Below are positions 12,730-30,390 of a stretch of DNA of 30,390 nucleotides, piece after piece. The notes under the pieces were generated by a model. It was given only the letters and a program-made list of their open reading frames with translations, did no database searches and had not been told where the DNA came from. Position numbers and translations under genes: made by a program. The DNA comes from a virus: positions 1-30,390 of the IMG/VR virus record IMGVR_UViG_3300032214_001157, one strand, 5' to 3'. Each line of letters opens with the position of its first letter. The stretch's first letter is position 1.

Positions 12730-13200
12730 ATGGCGAACGGAGTTACATATGGATTAAATTTCCCATTTCGGGATTCTCGACGTGGGGATTATTTGGAACT
12801 CACAGAATTTGAGTCCCAACAAATCAAATCGGATTTAATACATTTATTATTAACTAGAAAGGGAAGTAGATATTATTTACCTGAGTTTGGTACTAGATTG
12901 TATGAATTTATTTTTGAACCATTTGATGGTTTGACATTTGACGCTATACAATCGGATATTAGAGACGCGGTTGAAACCTTCATGCCAAACTTATTATTAA
13001 ATCAAATATCTATTACACCAGCTGATCCTGAATTAGAGGTTGATACAATGTTGGGTGAAAATACTGTAGGGACAAGTGAATCGCCAGTTTATAGATTTCC
13101 AGGAAAAGGGACATCTGAGTATACTGCAAAAATTAGAATAGATTACGCGAACAATAGAAGTTCTTTTGCTCAAAGTGATTTTGTTATTATAAATATTTAA
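12730..13200 (+). CDS. 25: Baseplate wedge protein gp25 (GPW/gp25 family)
   Basis: 156 residues (T4 gp25 has 132). A lysozyme-fold wedge component that joins the baseplate to the inner tail tube and sheath. The core pattern is clear: an N-terminal GLNFPFRDS, then a helix (QQIKSDLIHLLLTRKGSRYY) followed by LPEFGTRLYEFIFEP, the hallmark of the gp25/GpW family, and a helix IQSDIRDAVETFMP. A loop of about 25 residues (about 100-130) accounts for the extra length, and the last strand is KIRIDYANN. The gene starts the late baseplate unit after the nrdA terminator and is followed 5 bases later by gp6, the usual family neighbour. Confidence 0.94.
   Translation: MANGVTYGLNFPFRDSRRGDYLELTEFESQQIKSDLIHLLLTRKGSRYYLPEFGTRLYEFIFEPFDGLTFDAIQSDIRDAVETFMPNLLLNQISITPADPELEVDTMLGENTVGTSESPVYRFPGKGTSEYTAKIRIDYANNRSSFAQSDFVIINI
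13188..13195 (+). promoter_or_regulatory. Exact T4 late promoter consensus TATAAATA before gp6
   Basis: TATAAATA lies inside the last codons of the gp25 gene, 10 bases before the gp6 ATG at 13206. It is the exact T4 late -10 sequence, and I noticed no other plus-strand copy. Because it encodes the C-terminus of gp25 in AT-rich DNA it could be chance. Confidence 0.3.
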
Positions 13201-13205
13201 TATAA

Positions 13206-15044
13206 ATGGCTAATCGTAAAATATCATATACCACTAGAGATTATCAGGGGATAAGAACCGAACTATTAAATTATGTGAGGACTTATTATCCCGAGCTCAT
13301 ACAAGATTTCAATGACGCTTCAGTATTTTCTGTGTTCTTAGATTTGAATGCCGCGGTTGCTGATAACTTACACTACCACATTGATCGAAGTATTCAAGAA
13401 ACGGTTCTTCAATACGCGCAACAAAGATCTTCAATATATAATATAGCAAGAACTTATGGTTTGAAACTTCCTGGCCAAAGACCATCGGTATCTTTGGTTG
13501 ATTTTTCAATCACAGTCCCGGCGTTCGGAGACAAAGAAGACGAACGATACCTTGGAATTTTAGCAAGAGGATCTCAAGTCACTGGAGCGGGAATTGTATT
13601 TGAGAATGTATATGATATAGATTTCACATCTCCTTACAACGCTCAAGGTTTCCCAAATAGATTAAAAATACCTAACTTCAACGCTAATAATGTTTTAGTT
13701 AACTACACAATTACCAAAAGAGAATTAGTTGTAAACGGTGTTACCAAAGTATTCAAAAGAGTCATTACTCCAAATGATGTAAAACCATTCTTCGAACTAT
13801 TCTTACCTGAGAAAAATGTTTTGGGAATTACGAGTGTTTTATTAAAGAGTGGAACTGAGTATACTAATTTGCCAACTACAGCTGAATTTTTAGGTTTGTC
13901 TAATAAATGGTATGAAGTCGATGCATTAGCTGAAGATAGAGTTTTCATCGAAGATCCAACTAAAGTTTCAGATCAACCTGGTATTAAAGTAGGTAGATAT
14001 ATTCAAACTTCTAATAGATTTATAAGTGAATATACTCCTGAAGGATTTAAAAAACTCACATTTGGAGGTGGAACAAATACCGCTCAAGATGCTCTTGATC
14101 AGTTTACAACCTTAGGTGCTACCTTAGATATACAAAGATATTCAAATAATATATCTTTGGGATCGGCTCTTACACCTAATTCAACACTATTCGTTCAATA
14201 CAGAGTTGGTGGGGGATTGGGTACAAACTTGGGGACAAATGTAATTACACAAATCGGAACAGTTTCTTTCTTTGTCAATGGACCATCCGAAATTACGAAC
14301 TCCTCAGTTGTAAACTCATTAAGATGTAATAACGTCACTGCTGCAGTAGGTGGCGCTGGATTACCTTCACTGGAAGAAATCAGAAATTATGTGTCATTCA
14401 ACTTCTCAGCACAAAAGAGAGCTGTGACAGTTCAAGATTACGAATCTATAATTAGAAACATGCCATCAGAGTTTGGGGCACCTGCTAAGGTTTCTGTCAC
14501 TGAAGATAACAACAAGATTCTTATTCAGCTTCTATCATACGACACCTCAGGTAAGTTGACCAACATTGTTTCGAATACTTTGAAACAAAACATTGCAACT
14601 TATTTGTCAAACTATAGAATGATGAATGATTATATTTCAATTCTTACTGCTGAAGTAATAGATCTGAGCTTAGAAGTATCGATAGTTCTTGATTCCGCAC
14701 AAAACTCAGGACAAGTAATTGCTGATGTTGTTGATAGAATATCAACATACTTCAATCCACAAACACGACAGTTGGGTCAAAATGTTTATTTGTCTGAAAT
14801 ACAAAGTATAGTACAGAATCAAAATGGTGTATTGACTGTGGCTGGAATTAAAGTGTTTAATAATGTTGGAGGACAATACTCTTCAGCTGAGACATCAATG
14901 CAATATTCGAATCCCGAAACACGAGAAATTCAACCAGTAGATGACACAATATTTGCGCAACCTTTCCAAGTCTATCAAGTTAGATATCCGGCAAAAGATA
15001 TCAAGGTGTCCGTGAAAAACTTCCAATCTATAACCTTTTCTTAA
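13206..15044 (+). CDS. 6: Baseplate wedge protein gp6 (baseplate J-like)
   Basis: 612 residues (T4 gp6 has 660). It forms the ring of wedge dimers that surrounds the hub and transmits the contraction signal. The N-terminus (YTTRDYQGIRTELLNYVR, then SVFSVFLDLNAAVADNLHYHIDR and an Ala/Tyr helix ending YGLKLPGQ) is the classical gp6/J start. The middle is strand-rich, and residues about 395-520 contain the conserved core (PSLEEIRNYVSFNFSAQKRAVTVQDYESIIRNMP, with KRAVT-x-QDYE). The C-terminal part is a further strand domain. The gene follows gp25 by 5 bases, the conserved pair order in T4-like and P2-like tails. A hairpin-like region and a late promoter element follow. Confidence 0.94.
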   Translation: MANRKISYTTRDYQGIRTELLNYVRTYYPELIQDFNDASVFSVFLDLNAAVADNLHYHIDRSIQETVLQYAQQRSSIYNIARTYGLKLPGQRPSVSLVDFSITVPAFGDKEDERYLGILARGSQVTGAGIVFENVYDIDFTSPYNAQGFPNRLKIPNFNANNVLVNYTITKRELVVNGVTKVFKRVITPNDVKPFFELFLPEKNVLGITSVLLKSGTEYTNLPTTAEFLGLSNKWYEVDALAEDRVFIEDPTKVSDQPGIKVGRYIQTSNRFISEYTPEGFKKLTFGGGTNTAQDALDQFTTLGATLDIQRYSNNISLGSALTPNSTLFVQYRVGGGLGTNLGTNVITQIGTVSFFVNGPSEITNSSVVNSLRCNNVTAAVGGAGLPSLEEIRNYVSFNFSAQKRAVTVQDYESIIRNMPSEFGAPAKVSVTEDNNKILIQLLSYDTSGKLTNIVSNTLKQNIATYLSNYRMMNDYISILTAEVIDLSLEVSIVLDSAQNSGQVIADVVDRISTYFNPQTRQLGQNVYLSEIQSIVQNQNGVLTVAGIKVFNNVGGQYSSAETSMQYSNPETREIQPVDDTIFAQPFQVYQVRYPAKDIKVSVKNFQSITFS

Positions 15045-23477: not shown

Positions 23478-24386
23478 ATGGCAATTGGATCATATGGCAC
23501 GATAAGACCTTCAGATGTTTCACCCGCTGACGTTGAAATCATAATGAATTACACTCCAACAAGAGATGTGACAGATCAATTTGTGTTAACAAAATTAGAT
23601 GCACAAACTATTCTGAGACCTTATTTCGCAAACAGTGAAACTGGAGGTACACCAGGAGTAGAAGTTTTGGGAGGACTTTACAATTTAACTCTTCCTGCGA
23701 ATCAATTTAACGCTTTGGGAATTTATACACTTTATCTGAGACCAGCCGAGATTAGAACAGTAATCTCAGATTGTGGGGTTCTAAGTGCATTACCGAACGT
23801 GAAAGGTATTATCATTGACATTACAGATGTACCAGTACAATATCAGAATAAATTTGTACCACAGGGATTAGTTGGATTTAGAATTGAATATCTAAACTCA
23901 GACGGATCTAGAATACCCAACTTTTTCAGAGTTGTTACATCTAGTTTCTTTTGCGAACCTGTTGTAACTAATGAAGTAAACACGACTCAGAAAGCTATAC
24001 GATATAGATATGTTGATGGAAATTCAAATTTAATATTTCTAACATTATCTCCTTCATCTTCGCCAACAAACAAACCAAACGCAACACCGTTTATTGGTCA
24101 GCCAGATCAGAATATTATCATTACTAATACCTTTTTCAATCCAGTGACAATCGAAATTGAAATGGTTGAGTACGATATCTCATCTCTTGCGATTGCTCTG
24201 TATGGTAATCAAACTAAATCTATCGATGATGGTATATACACTATCTACGACTCAAGTAACAACATATACAGACAATACAATCTTTACGAAATTAGAGATC
24301 AATTTAATGCTCTTCTTTATGAGGTTAGACAGAGTAGAGGTAATAATATTGATTTCAGTAAAAACTTTACAAACATAACTAGTTAA
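23478..24386 (+). CDS. Hypothetical structural protein (302 aa)
   Basis: It begins a new cassette behind the late-promoter element, and its stop overlaps the next ATG by one base (TAATG). The N-terminus (GTIRPSDVSPADVEIIMNYTPTRD) is followed by strand-rich sequence with LGGLYNLTLPANQFNALGIYTLYLRP, a β-sandwich-like pattern, then a Ser/Pro/Asn loop (SPSSSPTNKPNATP) and a C-terminal helical region (YNLYEIRDQFNALLYEVRQSRG). No known domain is recognised. The tight coupling with the gpI/gp7-like gene suggests it works with the baseplate wedge. Overlapping ORFs in other frames look like shadows. Confidence 0.84.
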   Translation: MAIGSYGTIRPSDVSPADVEIIMNYTPTRDVTDQFVLTKLDAQTILRPYFANSETGGTPGVEVLGGLYNLTLPANQFNALGIYTLYLRPAEIRTVISDCGVLSALPNVKGIIIDITDVPVQYQNKFVPQGLVGFRIEYLNSDGSRIPNFFRVVTSSFFCEPVVTNEVNTTQKAIRYRYVDGNSNLIFLTLSPSSSPTNKPNATPFIGQPDQNIIITNTFFNPVTIEIEMVEYDISSLAIALYGNQTKSIDDGIYTIYDSSNNIYRQYNLYEIRDQFNALLYEVRQSRGNNIDFSKNFTNITS

Positions 24387-27373
24387 TGGCTACGACTCAA
24401 AGTACTACCAAATTTTTTTACCCACCACGGCCAGGTAGTGGTGCTGCAACCTTCTCTGACAATATTGTAGGATTACAAACAGTTGAAGGGGGAGGGTTGA
24501 CGCAAGGTAACTTCGAGTTTACAACTTCGGTAGTTGAAAAAGTTAACAGAACTTTTAACGTAGGAGCGTTTTCTGAACCAATCAATTTAGAGGGATTAGA
24601 TATCAATGATGTTAATGAAAGTAGAAGAATACTTGCAACACAATTCAGAGTTTACCCGAACTATGATGTGTCTCAGGTTCTAAACTTTTCGATGTATGGA
24701 TCATTAAGTAAACGATTCCAAGTTTCGATAACAGACATCATTCATAAGTTTCCAGCATCACTCGATGTAGTATTTAACAATCCACAGTTTATTACAGCCG
24801 CAACGGCTACAAATATATCTTATGATTCAGTATTAGATGAAACATCTTTTCGTGTCTTTGTAAGTAGAATCAATAACCCTTTTGATATCGATTATTCAAT
24901 TTCTGCGGCAACTAATCTATCGGTTAGGGAGATTGTAGTTTCACCATATCGTAATTTATATAACACCTATTTGGACTATTGCGTCTCCATTGACGACAAT
25001 ATTTTCAACTTAGTTTCTTTCACTCCATCACCAACATTATCGACAGGATATGTTGATTTCATAGTTTCGGGAGCACCTTTCGGAACAACTGCGGCAACTT
25101 TCTTTAGAGATTTTCAAATTAGACCAAACGATTTTGTTGTAGATAAAGTTTTCGCTGAAGACTTCGATGAAGTACAAAAGTTCCTTCTTAATAGATTGAT
25201 TAGACCCGAGTATACCGCCCTCTTCCAAGTTCCACAACAAAACGAAGCTGGACAGTTTTTTACAGACTACAAACAAGTAACTTGGCCAAAAGAAGGAGTT
25301 TGGAACTTGGATATCAAGTCATTCTTGTTCGAAAATTATTTATCTCAATTGGAACAGATCGCCGCCAACTTAGATGAGTTTAAAACTAATTTAGTTTCAA
25401 GATTTTTAATCTCTGACTCGTTGAAGGAATTTGATACGCTTGGAAGAAAAGTTGAGAAAATATTTCAAATTTATGGTAGAAGTTTCGATCAAATTAAACA
25501 ATTTATTGATGCGTTAGCTTACATGAATTCCGTAAGTTATAATGCGACAAACGACATACCATCACAACTGTTAGTAAATTTAGCACAAACTTTAGGTTGG
25601 AGCTCTAATTTTTCTCCAATAACAAATGAAGATTTTCTAAGTTCCGTATTTGGGAATACATCAACACCAACATATCCTGGATATGCTAGAGCTCTAACAC
25701 CAACTGAGTTAAACTACTCCTTCTACCGTAATTTAATTCTAAATGCGTCATACCTTTTCAAGTCAAAAGGTACTCGAAGATCTGTAGAGTTTATGTTACG
25801 GTTAATTGGGGCTCCTGAATCACTAATCGAATTCAATGAATACATATACTTGGCTGACCAAAAAATCAACATGGAGCAATTCGATGTTCAATGGGCGGCT
25901 ATCTCAGGTGGTACTTATGTTGAAAATACACCAGCATATCTACCGGGATCAACGTATAAAATCAAAGGACAAGTATTCACAGCGTTTACCTCAACTAACA
26001 CATATACTGATGTCACAACACAATTAGATGATTACCCTGTAGATTTTGAGGGATACCCTGACGCTCCTTTAAACACGGAAAGTTATTTCTTCCAAGTAGG
26101 GGCTGGATGGTATGAGTCAACACCATCCCATAGAAGTCCCGAAGAAACTGTTATAACTGGTAATGTTTTCACAGGTCAAAATTTTGATGTTCAGACACAG
26201 CTGACTCCATTCAGTTATGGACAACCATATCTTGATAGATTCAGAAATTTCCCATTCATGACTGAAGGATTCAAATTGAAAAAAGTTGTGGATAACAACA
26301 AATCATGGTTGAGGGATGATGACAAAATAAGAATTTCAACGAGTGCGGACTATAATGCATATTACTTTGTAGACAACGAAAAGTTGGTACTCAATGTTAA
26401 AAATGCTGATATTTTCTTAAACCCATCACAAGGGTTAGTTTATGATGTGTGGGATCAATCAAGAAGATATGACTATCCAATACCTGAAACTGGACTCACA
26501 GTTAATTATCCTGTACCAGGGGGAGTCGATTCTACCTTTGTAAATCCTGAACCGAAAAAGAAAACATTTTTTGAATTTTCTCAAACCTTTTGGGAAAATA
26601 TGATCAATGTTAGAAATAGACAATACATCACGGATGGAAAGACAGGAGGATATCCTACTCTACAATCTATCTTTTGGAAATATATTGAATCTCAAAATAC
26701 GGTAGGTTTACCAAACAATCAATATACCTATCAGAAATTGATAGACTATGTAAATGGTATTGGTCCTTATTGGATGAAGTTAGTTGAACAAATGGTTCCA
26801 GCAACAACTTTGTGGAACACAGGAGTCAAGTTAGAAAACTCAATATTCCAAAGACAAAAATTTGTTTACCGAAGACAGAGAGGATGTCAATTTGTGCCAG
26901 TCCCTGTCGATCCTTGTTATATAATCTCGAATATTTTCGATTATACATGTACAACAGAATATGTAGATTTTAACATATATCCTTGGTTGAATGGAGATGT
27001 TGATGTCAATGACTTTAATAGTATCTTGAGTAACCGAGTCAATAATATGTTAGCCCAAAGTGGATTGACTCTCAATGATTGTGTCCAGAATTCAATAGAA
27101 ACTACTTGGTATGTTGACCTAAGAATAGATAATCAAATCTTGATTCAAGAACAATTCTATACAGGATATGGATTGAATGACGTTCCAACAAACACCTTAT
27201 GGAGAAATGCTTTGATTCAGTATTTACCACAGTTATATGATTATGGGTTTACCTATTTCTTGAACGGAAATTTTCTGACAATAACAAGTTTGACTTGTAC
27301 AGAAAGAAATTTGAATGATACGCTTTCTCTGAATTCTGGGATAAATATAAGTATAAACTGTACTAATAACTAA
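24386..27373 (+). CDS. Large baseplate protein with P2 gpI-like core, candidate gp7 equivalent (995 aa)
   Basis: Residues about 305-480 are helical and resemble phage tail protein I: FLFENYLSQLEQIAANLDEF, then GRKVEKIFQIYGRSFDQIKQ, QLLVNLAQTLGW, and the hallmark segment YLFKSKGTRRSVEFMLRLIG. Work on T4 and P2 baseplates equates gpI with part of T4 gp7, so this is the best gp7 candidate here; its length (995 against 1032) agrees. Residues about 510-830 are strand-rich. The last 100 residues hold a module with Cys899, VPT at 933-935 and Cys992 that recurs in the next gene. Both ends overlap neighbours by one base (TAATG). The wedge role is an inference from the gpI-like core and the gp25-gp6 context. 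Confidence 0.87.
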   Translation: MATTQSTTKFFYPPRPGSGAATFSDNIVGLQTVEGGGLTQGNFEFTTSVVEKVNRTFNVGAFSEPINLEGLDINDVNESRRILATQFRVYPNYDVSQVLNFSMYGSLSKRFQVSITDIIHKFPASLDVVFNNPQFITAATATNISYDSVLDETSFRVFVSRINNPFDIDYSISAATNLSVREIVVSPYRNLYNTYLDYCVSIDDNIFNLVSFTPSPTLSTGYVDFIVSGAPFGTTAATFFRDFQIRPNDFVVDKVFAEDFDEVQKFLLNRLIRPEYTALFQVPQQNEAGQFFTDYKQVTWPKEGVWNLDIKSFLFENYLSQLEQIAANLDEFKTNLVSRFLISDSLKEFDTLGRKVEKIFQIYGRSFDQIKQFIDALAYMNSVSYNATNDIPSQLLVNLAQTLGWSSNFSPITNEDFLSSVFGNTSTPTYPGYARALTPTELNYSFYRNLILNASYLFKSKGTRRSVEFMLRLIGAPESLIEFNEYIYLADQKINMEQFDVQWAAISGGTYVENTPAYLPGSTYKIKGQVFTAFTSTNTYTDVTTQLDDYPVDFEGYPDAPLNTESYFFQVGAGWYESTPSHRSPEETVITGNVFTGQNFDVQTQLTPFSYGQPYLDRFRNFPFMTEGFKLKKVVDNNKSWLRDDDKIRISTSADYNAYYFVDNEKLVLNVKNADIFLNPSQGLVYDVWDQSRRYDYPIPETGLTVNYPVPGGVDSTFVNPEPKKKTFFEFSQTFWENMINVRNRQYITDGKTGGYPTLQSIFWKYIESQNTVGLPNNQYTYQKLIDYVNGIGPYWMKLVEQMVPATTLWNTGVKLENSIFQRQKFVYRRQRGCQFVPVPVDPCYIISNIFDYTCTTEYVDFNIYPWLNGDVDVNDFNSILSNRVNNMLAQSGLTLNDCVQNSIETTWYVDLRIDNQILIQEQFYTGYGLNDVPTNTLWRNALIQYLPQLYDYGFTYFLNGNFLTITSLTCTERNLNDTLSLNSGINISINCTNN

Positions 27374-29082
27374 TGGCCTTGAATTATAATATAACGGTAA
27401 CTGGAGATTGTAGTAGTAACAATTCAGGGGCATTTAATTTATATGTTAGTGGAGGTACCCCTCCGTATACAGTAGAATTTTTAAGTCCTGTCTACGCATC
27501 ACAAACTATCACGACACAACCAGCTTCATTAGTTGGATTGGCGAGTATAGTCTATCAGATGAGAGTTAACGATAGTAGTTTACCTACTAACGAACAATTC
27601 TTATTAAACATACCAATTTCTAGCGGAGTTTGTGGGTCAATTGTTGCAACACAAAATACAACTTGTGGTCTGAACAATGGATCAGTAACTGGATCGTCTA
27701 CATCCCTTTATTCGTCAACAAACTTTTCATTATATGATGTAAATAACAATTACATCACTTCATCTGTTACCAATACTAACGCAGTAGTATTCGGAGAGTT
27801 GAGTGCCGGGACTTACTATTTGGGTGTAACTGACTTGGGGGGTTGTACTGCATTCACCCAAACTTTCATCATTGAAGATTCAGGTACTTTGAATTATGGA
27901 TTGTATGCGGTTCCTAACTCGAGTTGTGGAGGATCACCAATAGGGAAAATATTTGTTACAGGTCAAACAGGTTTAGCACCTTACTCTTACTTGTGGAGTA
28001 ATGGCCAGACAGGAAGTACTATCACGGGATTGACTTCGGGTACTTACTCTGTAGATGTAACAGACTCTTATGGATGTACTGTAACTAAAACCGCTGTCAT
28101 TACAGATGTCAATCCTGTGGGATTAGGATTATTTACTTCAACGGCTCCGAGTTGTTTACAATCGAACGGTGTGATAAATATGACTATCACAGGGGGGACT
28201 GAACCCTTTTACTACTCTGCGTCAACAGGAGATGTTTTGGTTTCTTATTCAAGAACATATACTTTATCTAACCTTTCCGCTGGACAATATAATTTCCAAG
28301 TAACTGATGCAGGCCTTTGCCAAATGTTTGCTGGTACCACCTTGGAGTCACCGAGTGGTATAACGTCGGTCTCGGTTCAAGGACAAAATTCAAGTTGTTC
28401 TAGTAGCAACGGATCTATAACTGTAAATGTAGTAGGTGGAACTACACCTTATACATACACTTTGATATATCCAACTGGAAATCAATTAAACATCAATACA
28501 AGTCAAACAACGCAAATATTTGAAAACCTAAGTGGGGGGACATATACTGTTGGAGTTGCGGATAACTCGGGGTGTTCTTACCTCGAGGAGTTAACGATTA
28601 TTGCTCAAAATAAGTTTTCATTCTCAACTCAAGTTGGTGGAACTTCTTGTAATCAAAACAATGGAACGGTTACTATATTAACCACAACGGGAGCGACACT
28701 TCCTTTAGATTATTCTGTGGATGGAATTCAAAACATTGTTGATACAAATTTAACAGGTGTCACGTTCAATAACTTGTCGGGAGGTACGCACATTATAACT
28801 GTAACTGATGCTGATGGATGTGCAAGAACTAGCAACATAGTTGTTCCTTTCAGTCAACCACTTACTTATTCGTTGGTAAATACTTCCTGTGGTAGTGGTA
28901 ATAGTGGAAAAATTACAGCATTCATTACTTCAGGAGAACCTCCATTCACTTTCAATTGGTCGACTAATGTTCCAAATAATCCTCAGTCAATCCAAGTATC
29001 CGGATTAACTGCAGGAACCTATTCATTGACCGTGGTCGACAATAATGGTTGTTCTCTCACAAGAAATTCTACTATCTCTTGT
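27373..29082 (+). repeat. Seven tandem SprB-like protein repeats
   Basis: Coding region for residues 1-570 of the 710-aa protein. First-Cys spacings are 85, 87, 76, 81, 84 and 80 residues. Repeats are divergent at the DNA level, so they are an old tandem expansion kept by selection rather than a recent duplication. Confidence 0.85.
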
Positions 29083-29505
29083 AATCAAAATTCTTTAACC
29101 TACCAAACATATACAATGGGTGCTGAGGTATTTAACATTGAGTCCCCAACGAAGTTTGGATTGTTACAAATGTTGAATGAAGGGTTCGTAGATTTAACTA
29201 ATGCCAACAACGGATGTGATCTTGTTAATGCAACATTTACTGCAAAAGTTTCAGTTAATCCATCAGGAGTTGTGGCAACTCAAAATTTCTTTACTTCAAC
29301 ATCGTTAGTAGAAGTTCCGACTGATAATCAGTGGTATGACACTTTAAAAACTTTGTTGTTGGGAATAAATGGAGTTGGTAATGTTTCAATTGATCAGTTG
29401 AATAACCAAATAACGATTGAAACAAGCCGAAACAATACTTCATTGGAAGGAGAAGAAATTGTCGTAGAGTTGATAATCGATTATAACATAATTTGTTTAT
29501 CATGA
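27373..29505 (+). CDS. SprB-repeat tail/fibre protein (710 aa)
   Basis: Seven repeats of about 80 residues can be aligned on a first Cys (residues 13, 98, 185, 261, 342, 426, 506). Most copies show the SprB-repeat pattern: Cys...NNGS, a GG-x-x-PY turn, an L-S-x-G-x-Y strand and V-x-D-x-x-GC (examples LSAGTYYLGVTDLGGC, LTSGTYSVDVTDSYGC). Repeat 1 is degenerate. SprB repeats are best known from Bacteroidota surface adhesins. Residues about 575-710 form a C-terminal module shared with the preceding gene (Cys615, VPT at 648-650, Cys708). There is no signal peptide, as expected for a virion protein. Likely a fibre or spike that contacts the host surface. The gene overlaps the previous one by one base and the next by four (ATGA). 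Confidence 0.9.
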   Translation: MALNYNITVTGDCSSNNSGAFNLYVSGGTPPYTVEFLSPVYASQTITTQPASLVGLASIVYQMRVNDSSLPTNEQFLLNIPISSGVCGSIVATQNTTCGLNNGSVTGSSTSLYSSTNFSLYDVNNNYITSSVTNTNAVVFGELSAGTYYLGVTDLGGCTAFTQTFIIEDSGTLNYGLYAVPNSSCGGSPIGKIFVTGQTGLAPYSYLWSNGQTGSTITGLTSGTYSVDVTDSYGCTVTKTAVITDVNPVGLGLFTSTAPSCLQSNGVINMTITGGTEPFYYSASTGDVLVSYSRTYTLSNLSAGQYNFQVTDAGLCQMFAGTTLESPSGITSVSVQGQNSSCSSSNGSITVNVVGGTTPYTYTLIYPTGNQLNINTSQTTQIFENLSGGTYTVGVADNSGCSYLEELTIIAQNKFSFSTQVGGTSCNQNNGTVTILTTTGATLPLDYSVDGIQNIVDTNLTGVTFNNLSGGTHIITVTDADGCARTSNIVVPFSQPLTYSLVNTSCGSGNSGKITAFITSGEPPFTFNWSTNVPNNPQSIQVSGLTAGTYSLTVVDNNGCSLTRNSTISCNQNSLTYQTYTMGAEVFNIESPTKFGLLQMLNEGFVDLTNANNGCDLVNATFTAKVSVNPSGVVATQNFFTSTSLVEVPTDNQWYDTLKTLLLGINGVGNVSIDQLNNQITIETSRNNTSLEGEEIVVELIIDYNIICLS

Positions 29506-29834
29506 GCAGTCAGGTTGTAGTCACAGAGATTTCGGGAGGAACATACCCAATTAGTGTATTCATATCGGATATTTACGGAAACTATGAAACTTTTTTGGGA
29601 ACAATTAGTACTGGACCAGTTCCTCCAAACATAGAATATAACACAGTAATTCCACCAATATTTCAAACTGCACCTGAAATATTGTTGAAAATGGTTGATG
29701 CTAACAATTGCCAAGTATTTAAAGTATTGACTTGTGTATTTGGTGATTTCATCATAACTCAAAATGGAATTATAATAATAACTCAAAGTGGTAACAGTTT
29801 GGTTTTACAGTCATCGGAAGACGTTCCTTTATAG
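29502..29834 (+). CDS. Small structural protein, partial SprB-like repeat (110 aa)
   Basis: The start is ATG 29502, overlapping the stop of the 710-aa gene by four bases (ATGA); the in-frame TTG nine bases earlier is less likely. The product begins VVVTEISGGTYPISVFISD, which resembles the SprB-repeat GGTY strand. Its middle (PEILLKMVDANNCQVFKVLTC) recalls the end of SprB repeat 7 (SLTVVDNNGCSLTRNSTISC). The C-terminus is a repetitive strand (GDFIITQNGIIIITQSGNSLVLQSS). It is probably a small fibre or attachment protein translated by coupling with the 710-aa gene. No family is assigned with certainty. The gene ends with TAG before the next promoter-like element. Confidence 0.82.
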   Translation: MSSQVVVTEISGGTYPISVFISDIYGNYETFLGTISTGPVPPNIEYNTVIPPIFQTAPEILLKMVDANNCQVFKVLTCVFGDFIITQNGIIIITQSGNSLVLQSSEDVPL

Positions 29835-29892: not shown

Positions 29893-30390
29893 ATGTCAAA
29901 CACTCGAATAACTGATTTACCCATAGTCTCCGCTGCAACCCCAAACGACAGACTATACATTGTTACTGGCTTTACTGGAGGAACCTCAGGTACTTCAGGT
30001 CAGATTGCTTTTTCATCATTCACTGCTAGTATTTCAGGTGGAACTAGCGGTACAAGTGGGTCATCAGGATCGAGTGGAACATCGGGGACTAGTGGGACGA
30101 GTGGAACTAGTGGATCTTCAGGACTTGAAGGTAATTTGGCTATATGGAGATTTACGGGAAATACCGATACTACAAGTAATCCAGGATCTTCATATTTTTC
30201 ATTGAATACAGGTGATGACTTTTCATTGACAACAACTTCAATTGCAATCAATGATACTGCTTACGCGCCATCGGCATCTTTCCAAACTATATTAAATTCA
30301 CTTACAGTTGATACAATTATTAAACTTGTAAGAGTTGATGATCCATCATATTTCAAAGTTCTTAAAATTACCGCAATAATTCCACCTCAA
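29893..30390 (+). CDS. N-terminal part of a tail-fibre-like protein with Gly-Thr/Ser-Ser triplets (runs off the window)
   Basis: 166 codons from ATG 29893 stay open to the right edge. The N-terminus (MSNTRITDLPIVSAATPNDR, then LYIVTGFTGGTSGTSG) resembles the start of phage fibre proteins, which often begin with a short attachment segment. A block of nine Gly-Thr/Ser-Ser triplets follows (residues about 50-77), giving a thin collagen-like shaft, although proline is absent. After it the sequence becomes globular (LAIWRFTGNTDTTSNPGSSY). The gene follows the SprB-like genes at the end of the fibre cassette. I infer a host-recognition or decoration role. The C-terminal, receptor-binding end lies outside the window. 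Confidence 0.85.
   Translation, partial: MSNTRITDLPIVSAATPNDRLYIVTGFTGGTSGTSGQIAFSSFTASISGGTSGTSGSSGSSGTSGTSGTSGTSGSSGLEGNLAIWRFTGNTDTTSNPGSSYFSLNTGDDFSLTTTSIAINDTAYAPSASFQTILNSLTVDTIIKLVRVDDPSYFKVLKITAIIPPQ
30040..30123 (+). repeat. Gly-Thr/Ser-Ser triplet repeat in the fibre protein
   Basis: Nine consecutive triplets (GTS or GSS) plus a final Gly. Codons vary between copies (GGA/GGT/GGG, ACT/ACA/ACG), so the block is held by protein selection rather than recent slippage. A shorter GTSGTSG copy lies about 45 bases upstream. Confidence 0.85.

What the first reader, a model, noticed from the sequence alone, without database searches (positions are those of the whole stretch)
27373..29082. A phage tail protein made of seven SprB-like repeats mimics a host adhesin
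Repeats of about 80 residues, aligned on Cys at 13, 98, 185, 261, 342, 426 and 506, follow the SprB-repeat pattern. SprB is the mobile adhesin of gliding Flavobacteria. A virion fibre with the same repeat could bind surface polysaccharide as the host adhesin does, or could have been captured from a host gene. It also identifies the likely host phylum.
Basis: partly seen in the sequence, partly recalled or inferred. Interest (0 to 1): 0.6.

Follow-up and report, generated by a model that had tools for sequence, protein, structure and literature searches.

The report
Phage baseplate-linked rod of SprB repeats
A common, uncultured lineage of contractile-tailed phages, which probably infects Bacteroidota, carries next to its baseplate genes a seven-bead rod made of the same protein module that those bacteria use in their surface adhesins; it looks like a tail part rather than a working copy of the adhesin.

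Summary
The ORF is 27373-29505 (710 aa). Among 89 relatives the protein always directly follows the same 995-aa baseplate-type protein, and all 87 full-length relatives keep the seven-repeat layout. Its C-terminal domain is homologous to the end of that 995-aa protein. There is no signal peptide and no T9SS sorting domain, so it is a tail component, not an exported adhesin. Repeats at one position are orthologous across phages, and different positions are about as far apart as phage and bacterial repeats. The array is therefore old, and host capture is possible but not datable. The conserved layout, with swapped modules downstream, fits a shaft or adaptor better than the receptor-binding tip. 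SprB-type polysaccharide binding is untested. A Bacteroidota host is likely. New here: the first cysteine of one repeat is lost together with the second cysteine of the next repeat in bacterial arrays (replicated) and in phages. This predicts disulfide staples between neighbouring repeats. Precedent: BACON-repeat tail proteins of crAss-like phages.

The parts
27373..29505 (+). SprB-repeat tail protein, 710 aa plus stop
   Evidence: ORF, Pfam PF13573, 89 relatives
27379..27633 (+). repeat 1 (residues 3-87); has the first Cys (13) but no Cys in the F-G loop
27634..27888 (+). repeat 2 (residues 88-172)
27889..28119 (+). repeat 3 (residues 173-249); PF13573 hit over cut-off
28120..28359 (+). repeat 4 (residues 250-329)
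28360..28617 (+). repeat 5 (residues 330-415); best PF13573 hit, 35 bits
28618..28854 (+). repeat 6 (residues 416-494)
28855..29082 (+). repeat 7 (residues 495-570)
29083..29157 (+). low-confidence linker (residues 571-595)
   Evidence: pLDDT under 50
29158..29502 (+). C-terminal alpha/beta domain (residues 596-710), homologous to the end of the upstream 995-aa protein
   Evidence: hhalign E 7.5e-9 over 97 columns; same H-E-E-H-E-E-E order in two separate models
24386..27373 (+). 995-aa baseplate-type protein; its stop overlaps the fibre's ATG (TAATG)
   Evidence: residues 302-483 align with the large baseplate-cluster proteins of phages Mel-JY01 (E 1.6e-6) and immuto (E 1.2e-4); next to the fibre gene in 89 of 89 relatives
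26993..27370 (+). C-terminal domain of the 995-aa protein (residues 870-995)
29502..29834 (+). 110-aa protein, ATGA overlap with the fibre gene; conserved first three quarters, variable end
29893..30390 (+). start of a collagen-like SGTSG-repeat protein (cut by the window end; 1524 aa in relative L006)
12730..13200 (+). gp25-like baseplate wedge protein
   Evidence: phrog_261 E 3.7e-17
13206..15044 (+). gp6/J-like baseplate wedge protein
   Evidence: phrog_219 E 4e-23

Best explanation
The gene makes a baseplate-anchored, extended rod of a contractile-tailed phage. Seven SprB-type beta-sandwich domains form a string. The C-terminal domain, a paralogue of the end of the neighbouring baseplate-type protein, ties the string to the baseplate or to its fibre-attachment site. 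The small 110-aa protein and an exchangeable downstream module (collagen-like here, another type in most relatives) probably make the distal, host-range part. The cysteines are predicted to staple each repeat to the next: C13-C158, C98-C235, C185-C316, C261-C401, C342-C483, C426-C560, with C506-C570 closing the end, locking the rod when it meets oxidising surroundings after lysis. Shown by computation: SprB membership, seven domains, synteny, the shared C-terminal domain, the cysteine covariation. Inferred: presence in the virion, rod function, disulfide formation, order of the parts.
For: Tail operon with gp25-like and gp6-like proteins; the 995-aa neighbour aligns with a large protein of the baseplate cluster of two named phages and precedes the fibre in 89/89 relatives, with stop/start overlaps. 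C-terminal domain shared by the two proteins, hhalign E 7.5e-9, same element order in separate models. Constant layout: 87 of 89 relatives are 709 aa or longer, nearly all 709-719; the two shorter ones are cut by contig ends. Identity to the window falls in order p302 90%, 995-aa 79%, fibre 67%; only 19 loci match the start of the downstream collagen-like gene, and a different ORF family follows in most. Cysteine pairing: AB Cys of repeat i with FG Cys of repeat i+1, odds ratio 72, p 1e-11 in one set of mostly bacterial arrays and 164, p 5e-10 in another; bacterial within-array shuffles reach the observed double losses in 0/2000 and 11/2000; inside one repeat p 0.10 and 0.62. In phages L086 loses C13 and C158 together, and the L028/L029 group loses C506 and C570 together.
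Against: No virion proteomics. Model pTM is 0.34, so rod shape and order of domains in space are not shown. The model of the 995-aa protein is poor except mainly at its C-terminal domain. Best PHROG match of the repeats is a Hoc-like head decoration family. The fibre evolves faster than its upstream neighbours, which leaves room for a binding role. Some double cysteine losses come from one array (five of nine in L163), and array-end effects seen in the first set were not clearly seen in the second.
Confidence: 0.68

Rival explanations
1. It is itself the adhesin of the phage: the SprB repeats bind surface polysaccharide of the Bacteroidota host.
For: SprB repeats occur in many Bacteroidota proteins; tandem BACON repeats near phage tail genes were also proposed to bind hosts (PMC6949934); the fibre is less conserved (67%) than the upstream proteins.
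Against: Seven orthologous repeats with no gain or loss, and whole-length conservation, unlike a receptor-binding tip; exchange happens downstream. I found no paper showing sugar binding by an SprB repeat.
Confidence: 0.22
2. It is a Hoc-like decoration of the head made of Ig-like domains.
For: phrog_3945 'Hoc-like head decoration' E 1.2e-8 over one repeat; best PDB sequence match is a phage decoration protein, E 0.0018.
Against: These are matches to a generic GGxxPYxYxW beta-sandwich; the gene sits in a baseplate operon and shares its C-terminal domain with the neighbouring baseplate-type protein.
Confidence: 0.06
3. It is made in the infected cell and exported to the host surface, as a phage-encoded copy of a host adhesin.
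For: Such a protein does exist in a 642-kb phage record, LR756502: signal peptide, 14 SprB repeats and a T9SS type B sorting domain.
Against: The window protein starts MALNYNITVTGDC without a hydrophobic leader, ends in a baseplate-type domain, and has no T9SS sorting match over cut-off.
Confidence: 0.03

Closest known systems
Tandem BACON-domain tail-associated proteins of crAss-like phages (PMC6949934)
   Same: Tandem arrays of a domain typical of Bacteroidota, encoded beside phage tail genes, with host binding suggested but not shown.
   Different: Different domain family; crAss-like arrays arose by traceable duplications or by transfer of single domains, whereas here seven diverged, position-specific repeats are kept in every full-length relative.
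SprB, mobile gliding adhesin of Flavobacterium johnsoniae, and other T9SS substrates with SprB repeats
   Same: PF13573 repeats in tandem, with two conserved cysteines per repeat in the bacterial arrays examined.
   Different: SprB is 669 kDa and exported by the T9SS (PMC9127263); the phage protein is 710 aa, has no export or sorting signal and sits in a baseplate operon.
A0A6J5LD72, 'SprB repeat', uncultured Caudovirales phage (BFVD/UniProt)
   Same: 714 aa, 34% identity over the whole length, Foldseek E 2e-63; already bears the automatic name 'SprB repeat'.
   Different: Apparently automatic annotation only; I found no functional or evolutionary study of it.
GhpA, grappling hook protein of Aureispira (PDB 9flp, 9fly, 9flw)
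   Same: Best Foldseek matches in the PDB, E 2e-19, strings of beta-sandwiches of a Bacteroidota surface protein.
   Different: No sequence relation found; VIA-align ranks fibronectin type III domains equally high (Z 10-11), so this is a shared common fold.
Flavobacterium phage immuto and Microcystis phage Mel-JY01
   Same: Nearest named phages by gp6-like protein (26-27%); immuto is also nearest by helicase; similar baseplate gene order.
   Different: No SprB repeat anywhere in either genome.

Membership tests
SprB repeat, PF13573 | Profile score over the curated cut-off | tested here: met
   64.3 bits against 28; two single repeats over cut-off
SprB repeat, PF13573 | Tandem repeats of about 80 aa with conserved Cys and GG-P-Y-W core | tested here: met
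SprB-type T9SS adhesin | N-terminal signal peptide | tested here: not met
   N-terminus MALNYNITVTGDCSS read by eye; no prediction program available
SprB-type T9SS adhesin | T9SS C-terminal sorting domain (TIGR04131, TIGR04183, CHU_C) | tested here: not met
   No TIGR04131 or CHU_C match; TIGR04183 and Por_Secre_tail only below cut-off and inside the repeats. The same scans find TIGR04131 and CHU_C in the LR756502 protein
SprB-type T9SS adhesin | Adjacent sprF/porP-like gene | not tested
   Window ORFs were not all scanned for PorP/SprF
Phage tail-associated tandem domain proteins (BACON type) | Tandem array encoded beside tail genes | tested here: met
Phage tail-associated tandem domain proteins (BACON type) | BACON domain | tested here: not met
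   No BACON match in the Pfam scan at E 1
Hoc-like head decoration | Profile match over the protein | tested here: inconclusive
   phrog_3945 matches one repeat only
Virion structural protein | Present in purified virions | not testable with these tools
   No isolate, no proteomics

The most novel reading that the evidence does not exclude
SprB-repeat arrays, in bacterial adhesins and in phage rods alike, are covalently chained: the A-B loop cysteine of each repeat is disulfide-bonded to the F-G loop cysteine of the next, and the phage uses this as an oxidation-locked tail rod.
Probability: 0.55. Interest if true: 0.55.

Novelty: new variant of a known kind. Interest (0 to 1): 0.42.

Why it matters
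It shows a second Bacteroidota surface module, after BACON, fixed as a core part of a widespread phage tail: 542 matching viral contigs in one scan. It offers a marker for phages of Bacteroidota. It gives a simple, testable structural rule for SprB repeats, for which sequence searches found no solved structure.

Tried and rejected
Recent capture from a host gene: not supported, since bacterial matches are only 26-36% identical and each repeat position is its own cluster. Phage repeats as one clade: not rejected, p-AU 0.868; the test that adds the other phage repeats did not finish. Best-match bits favoured bacterial repeats over other phage positions for most positions, but this came partly from more bacterial rows; with equal numbers the result is mixed. 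BLOSUM comparison of the two C-terminal domains alone was weak (z 1.8); profile comparison was needed. Foldseek with the 995-aa model gave nothing, as most of that model is low confidence. Bacteroidota promoter motifs were more frequent than in a Markov simulation, but the extended sites lay mostly inside genes, so uninformative. The second query of the phylum survey drew the same sample as the first and so gave no outgroup. A search of named phages with the 995-aa protein found nothing.

Full report
WHAT IS THERE. The window is a 30-kb virus record. The ORF at 27373-29505 on the + strand codes for 710 residues. A second cysteine set lies at 87, 158, 235, 316, 401, 483 and 560. The seven repeats are 76-86 residues long; 19 of 21 pairs of repeats align better than all 200 shuffles. 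AlphaFold2 with 42 aligned relatives gives seven beta-sandwiches (pLDDT mostly 75-93), a low-confidence linker at 571-595 and a separate domain at 596-709.

SURROUNDINGS. The cluster holds gp25-like and gp6-like baseplate wedge proteins. The 995-aa protein directly upstream aligns over residues 302-483 with the large baseplate-cluster proteins of Microcystis phage Mel-JY01 (E 1.6e-6) and Flavobacterium phage immuto (E 1.2e-4). Its stop codon overlaps the fibre start (TAATG), and the fibre stop overlaps the start of a 110-aa protein (ATGA, true start 29502). Then comes a collagen-like SGTSG-repeat protein, cut by the window end and 1524 aa in relative L006.

SHARED C-TERMINAL DOMAIN. The last domain of the fibre and the last domain of the 995-aa protein are homologous: hhalign E 7.5e-9, 97 columns, 21% identity, with flanking cysteines kept. 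Two separate models give the same order of elements, helix-strand-strand-helix-three strands. I read this as a duplicated assembly or attachment domain, which ties the repeat string to the baseplate. That step is inference.

RELATIVES. All 87 full-length relatives are 709 aa or longer, nearly all 709-719, and in the alignments read the seven repeats line up one to one down to 40% identity. The 995-aa protein is next to the fibre in 89 of 89. Mean identity to the window is 90% for the 302-aa protein, 79% for the 995-aa protein and 67% for the fibre. Only 19 loci match the start of the collagen-like gene, and most relatives shown carry a different ORF family there (MSTYSILVTNNAPGC...) behind the 110-aa protein. 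So the exchangeable, probably host-range, part lies downstream of the SprB protein.

ORIGIN. A tree of 152 repeats puts each of the seven positions on one side of a branch across eight phages (support 39-99), with poor resolution deeper down. Holding all phage fibre repeats as one clade is not rejected (p-AU 0.868). Repeats of one phage are about as unlike each other as they are unlike bacterial repeats; bacterial repeats of one locus are more alike (mean score 136 against 106 between genomes), and the repeats of phage record LR756502 more still (183). The window's array is thus old and differentiated. Bacterial relatives come almost only from records named as Bacteroidota, and about one in six sampled genomes of that phylum has the repeat, against none of 14 control genomes. 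An ancient gain from Bacteroidota is plausible but neither dated nor directed by these data.

HOST. Only 2 of 21 window genes have a Shine-Dalgarno-like site, as in Flavobacterium phage immuto (1 of 20) and unlike Microcystis phage Mel-JY01 (10 of 21). Nearest named phages by gp6 and helicase include immuto. With the SprB domain itself this makes a Bacteroidota host likely, not certain.

CYSTEINE STAPLES. Each typical repeat has a cysteine in the loop after the first strand (AB) and one in the loop before the last strand (FG). In tandem arrays from the bacterial scan (with a few phage arrays), loss of the AB cysteine of repeat i goes with loss of the FG cysteine of repeat i+1 (odds ratio 72, p 1e-11), not clearly with that of the same repeat (p 0.10). 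In bacteria only there are nine double losses against 4.7 in within-array shuffles, reached in 0 of 2000. A second set of 43 bacterial arrays from other loci, partly of the same genomes, gives odds ratio 164, p 5e-10, nothing within a repeat and nothing at i+2; shuffles reach the observed count in 11 of 2000. In the phages, repeat 1, which has no preceding repeat, lacks the FG cysteine; L086 has lost C13 and C158 together; the L028/L029 group has lost C506 and C570 together. The simplest reading is a disulfide between neighbouring repeats. Weak points: five of the nine first-set double losses lie in one array; array-end effects were clear in the first set but not in the second; no coordinates were available to measure distances; no paper found in the library discusses it.

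COMPARISON. Best PDB structural matches are the Aureispira grappling-hook protein GhpA (E 2e-19), but fibronectin type III domains score as well by VIA-align and no PDB chain is convincingly related by sequence, so the fold is common. A phage protein in UniProt, A0A6J5LD72, is a 34% identical full-length relative already named 'SprB repeat'. The published parallel is tandem BACON domains in tail-associated proteins of crAss-like phages (PMC6949934). The window protein belongs to the SprB-repeat family but not to the SprB-type exported adhesins: no leader, no T9SS sorting domain.

VERDICT. Real, tail-associated, lineage-wide and old; partly anticipated by automatic annotation and by the BACON case. 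The adhesin-mimic reading remains possible but is not the best-supported one. The most useful new points are the shared baseplate domain and the predicted staples between repeats.

Noticed in passing
L032:9448-14457 (LR756502.1, 642-kb uncultured phage record): A complete T9SS type B adhesin in a phage record: signal peptide, 14 SprB repeats, PKD, CHU_C/TIGR04131 sorting domain, beside topoisomerase genes; the record has a terminase and two more CHU_C matches. This looks like a true phage-borne host-type surface adhesin.
   Followed up: partly
L181:10711-13200, L182:10766-13615, L183:8376-10694, L184:8389-10878: Long relatives carry a second protein with two spaced SprB-like repeats, in a cluster of fibre-like genes next to a conserved 728-747-aa protein (MAYIIKNTAGLINTRLTDVGRR...).
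   Followed up: partly
window 29502-29834 and following; L006, L020, L050, L066: The 110-aa protein has a conserved first three quarters and a variable end, and the gene after it switches between a collagen-like type and another family among relatives: a likely host-range exchange point.
   Followed up: partly
CP034120.1 (L128): Record titled 'Glaciecola amylolytica' is full of SprB repeats, and its phylum sample is identical to that of Flavobacterium; probably a mislabelled Bacteroidota genome.
   Followed up: partly
L172 (VHBA01000007.1): MAG titled 'Sphingomonadales bacterium' also encodes an SprB-repeat protein; transfer, contamination or mislabelling not resolved.
   Followed up: no
window 29740-29831 (end of the 110-aa protein); L028 and L029, C-termini of the fibre: Short motif at the ends of different tail proteins (such as FGDFIITQNGIIIITQSGNSLVLQ, or YQKVFQDDFEFIFQDGDEYIFQ); meaning unknown.
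   Followed up: no
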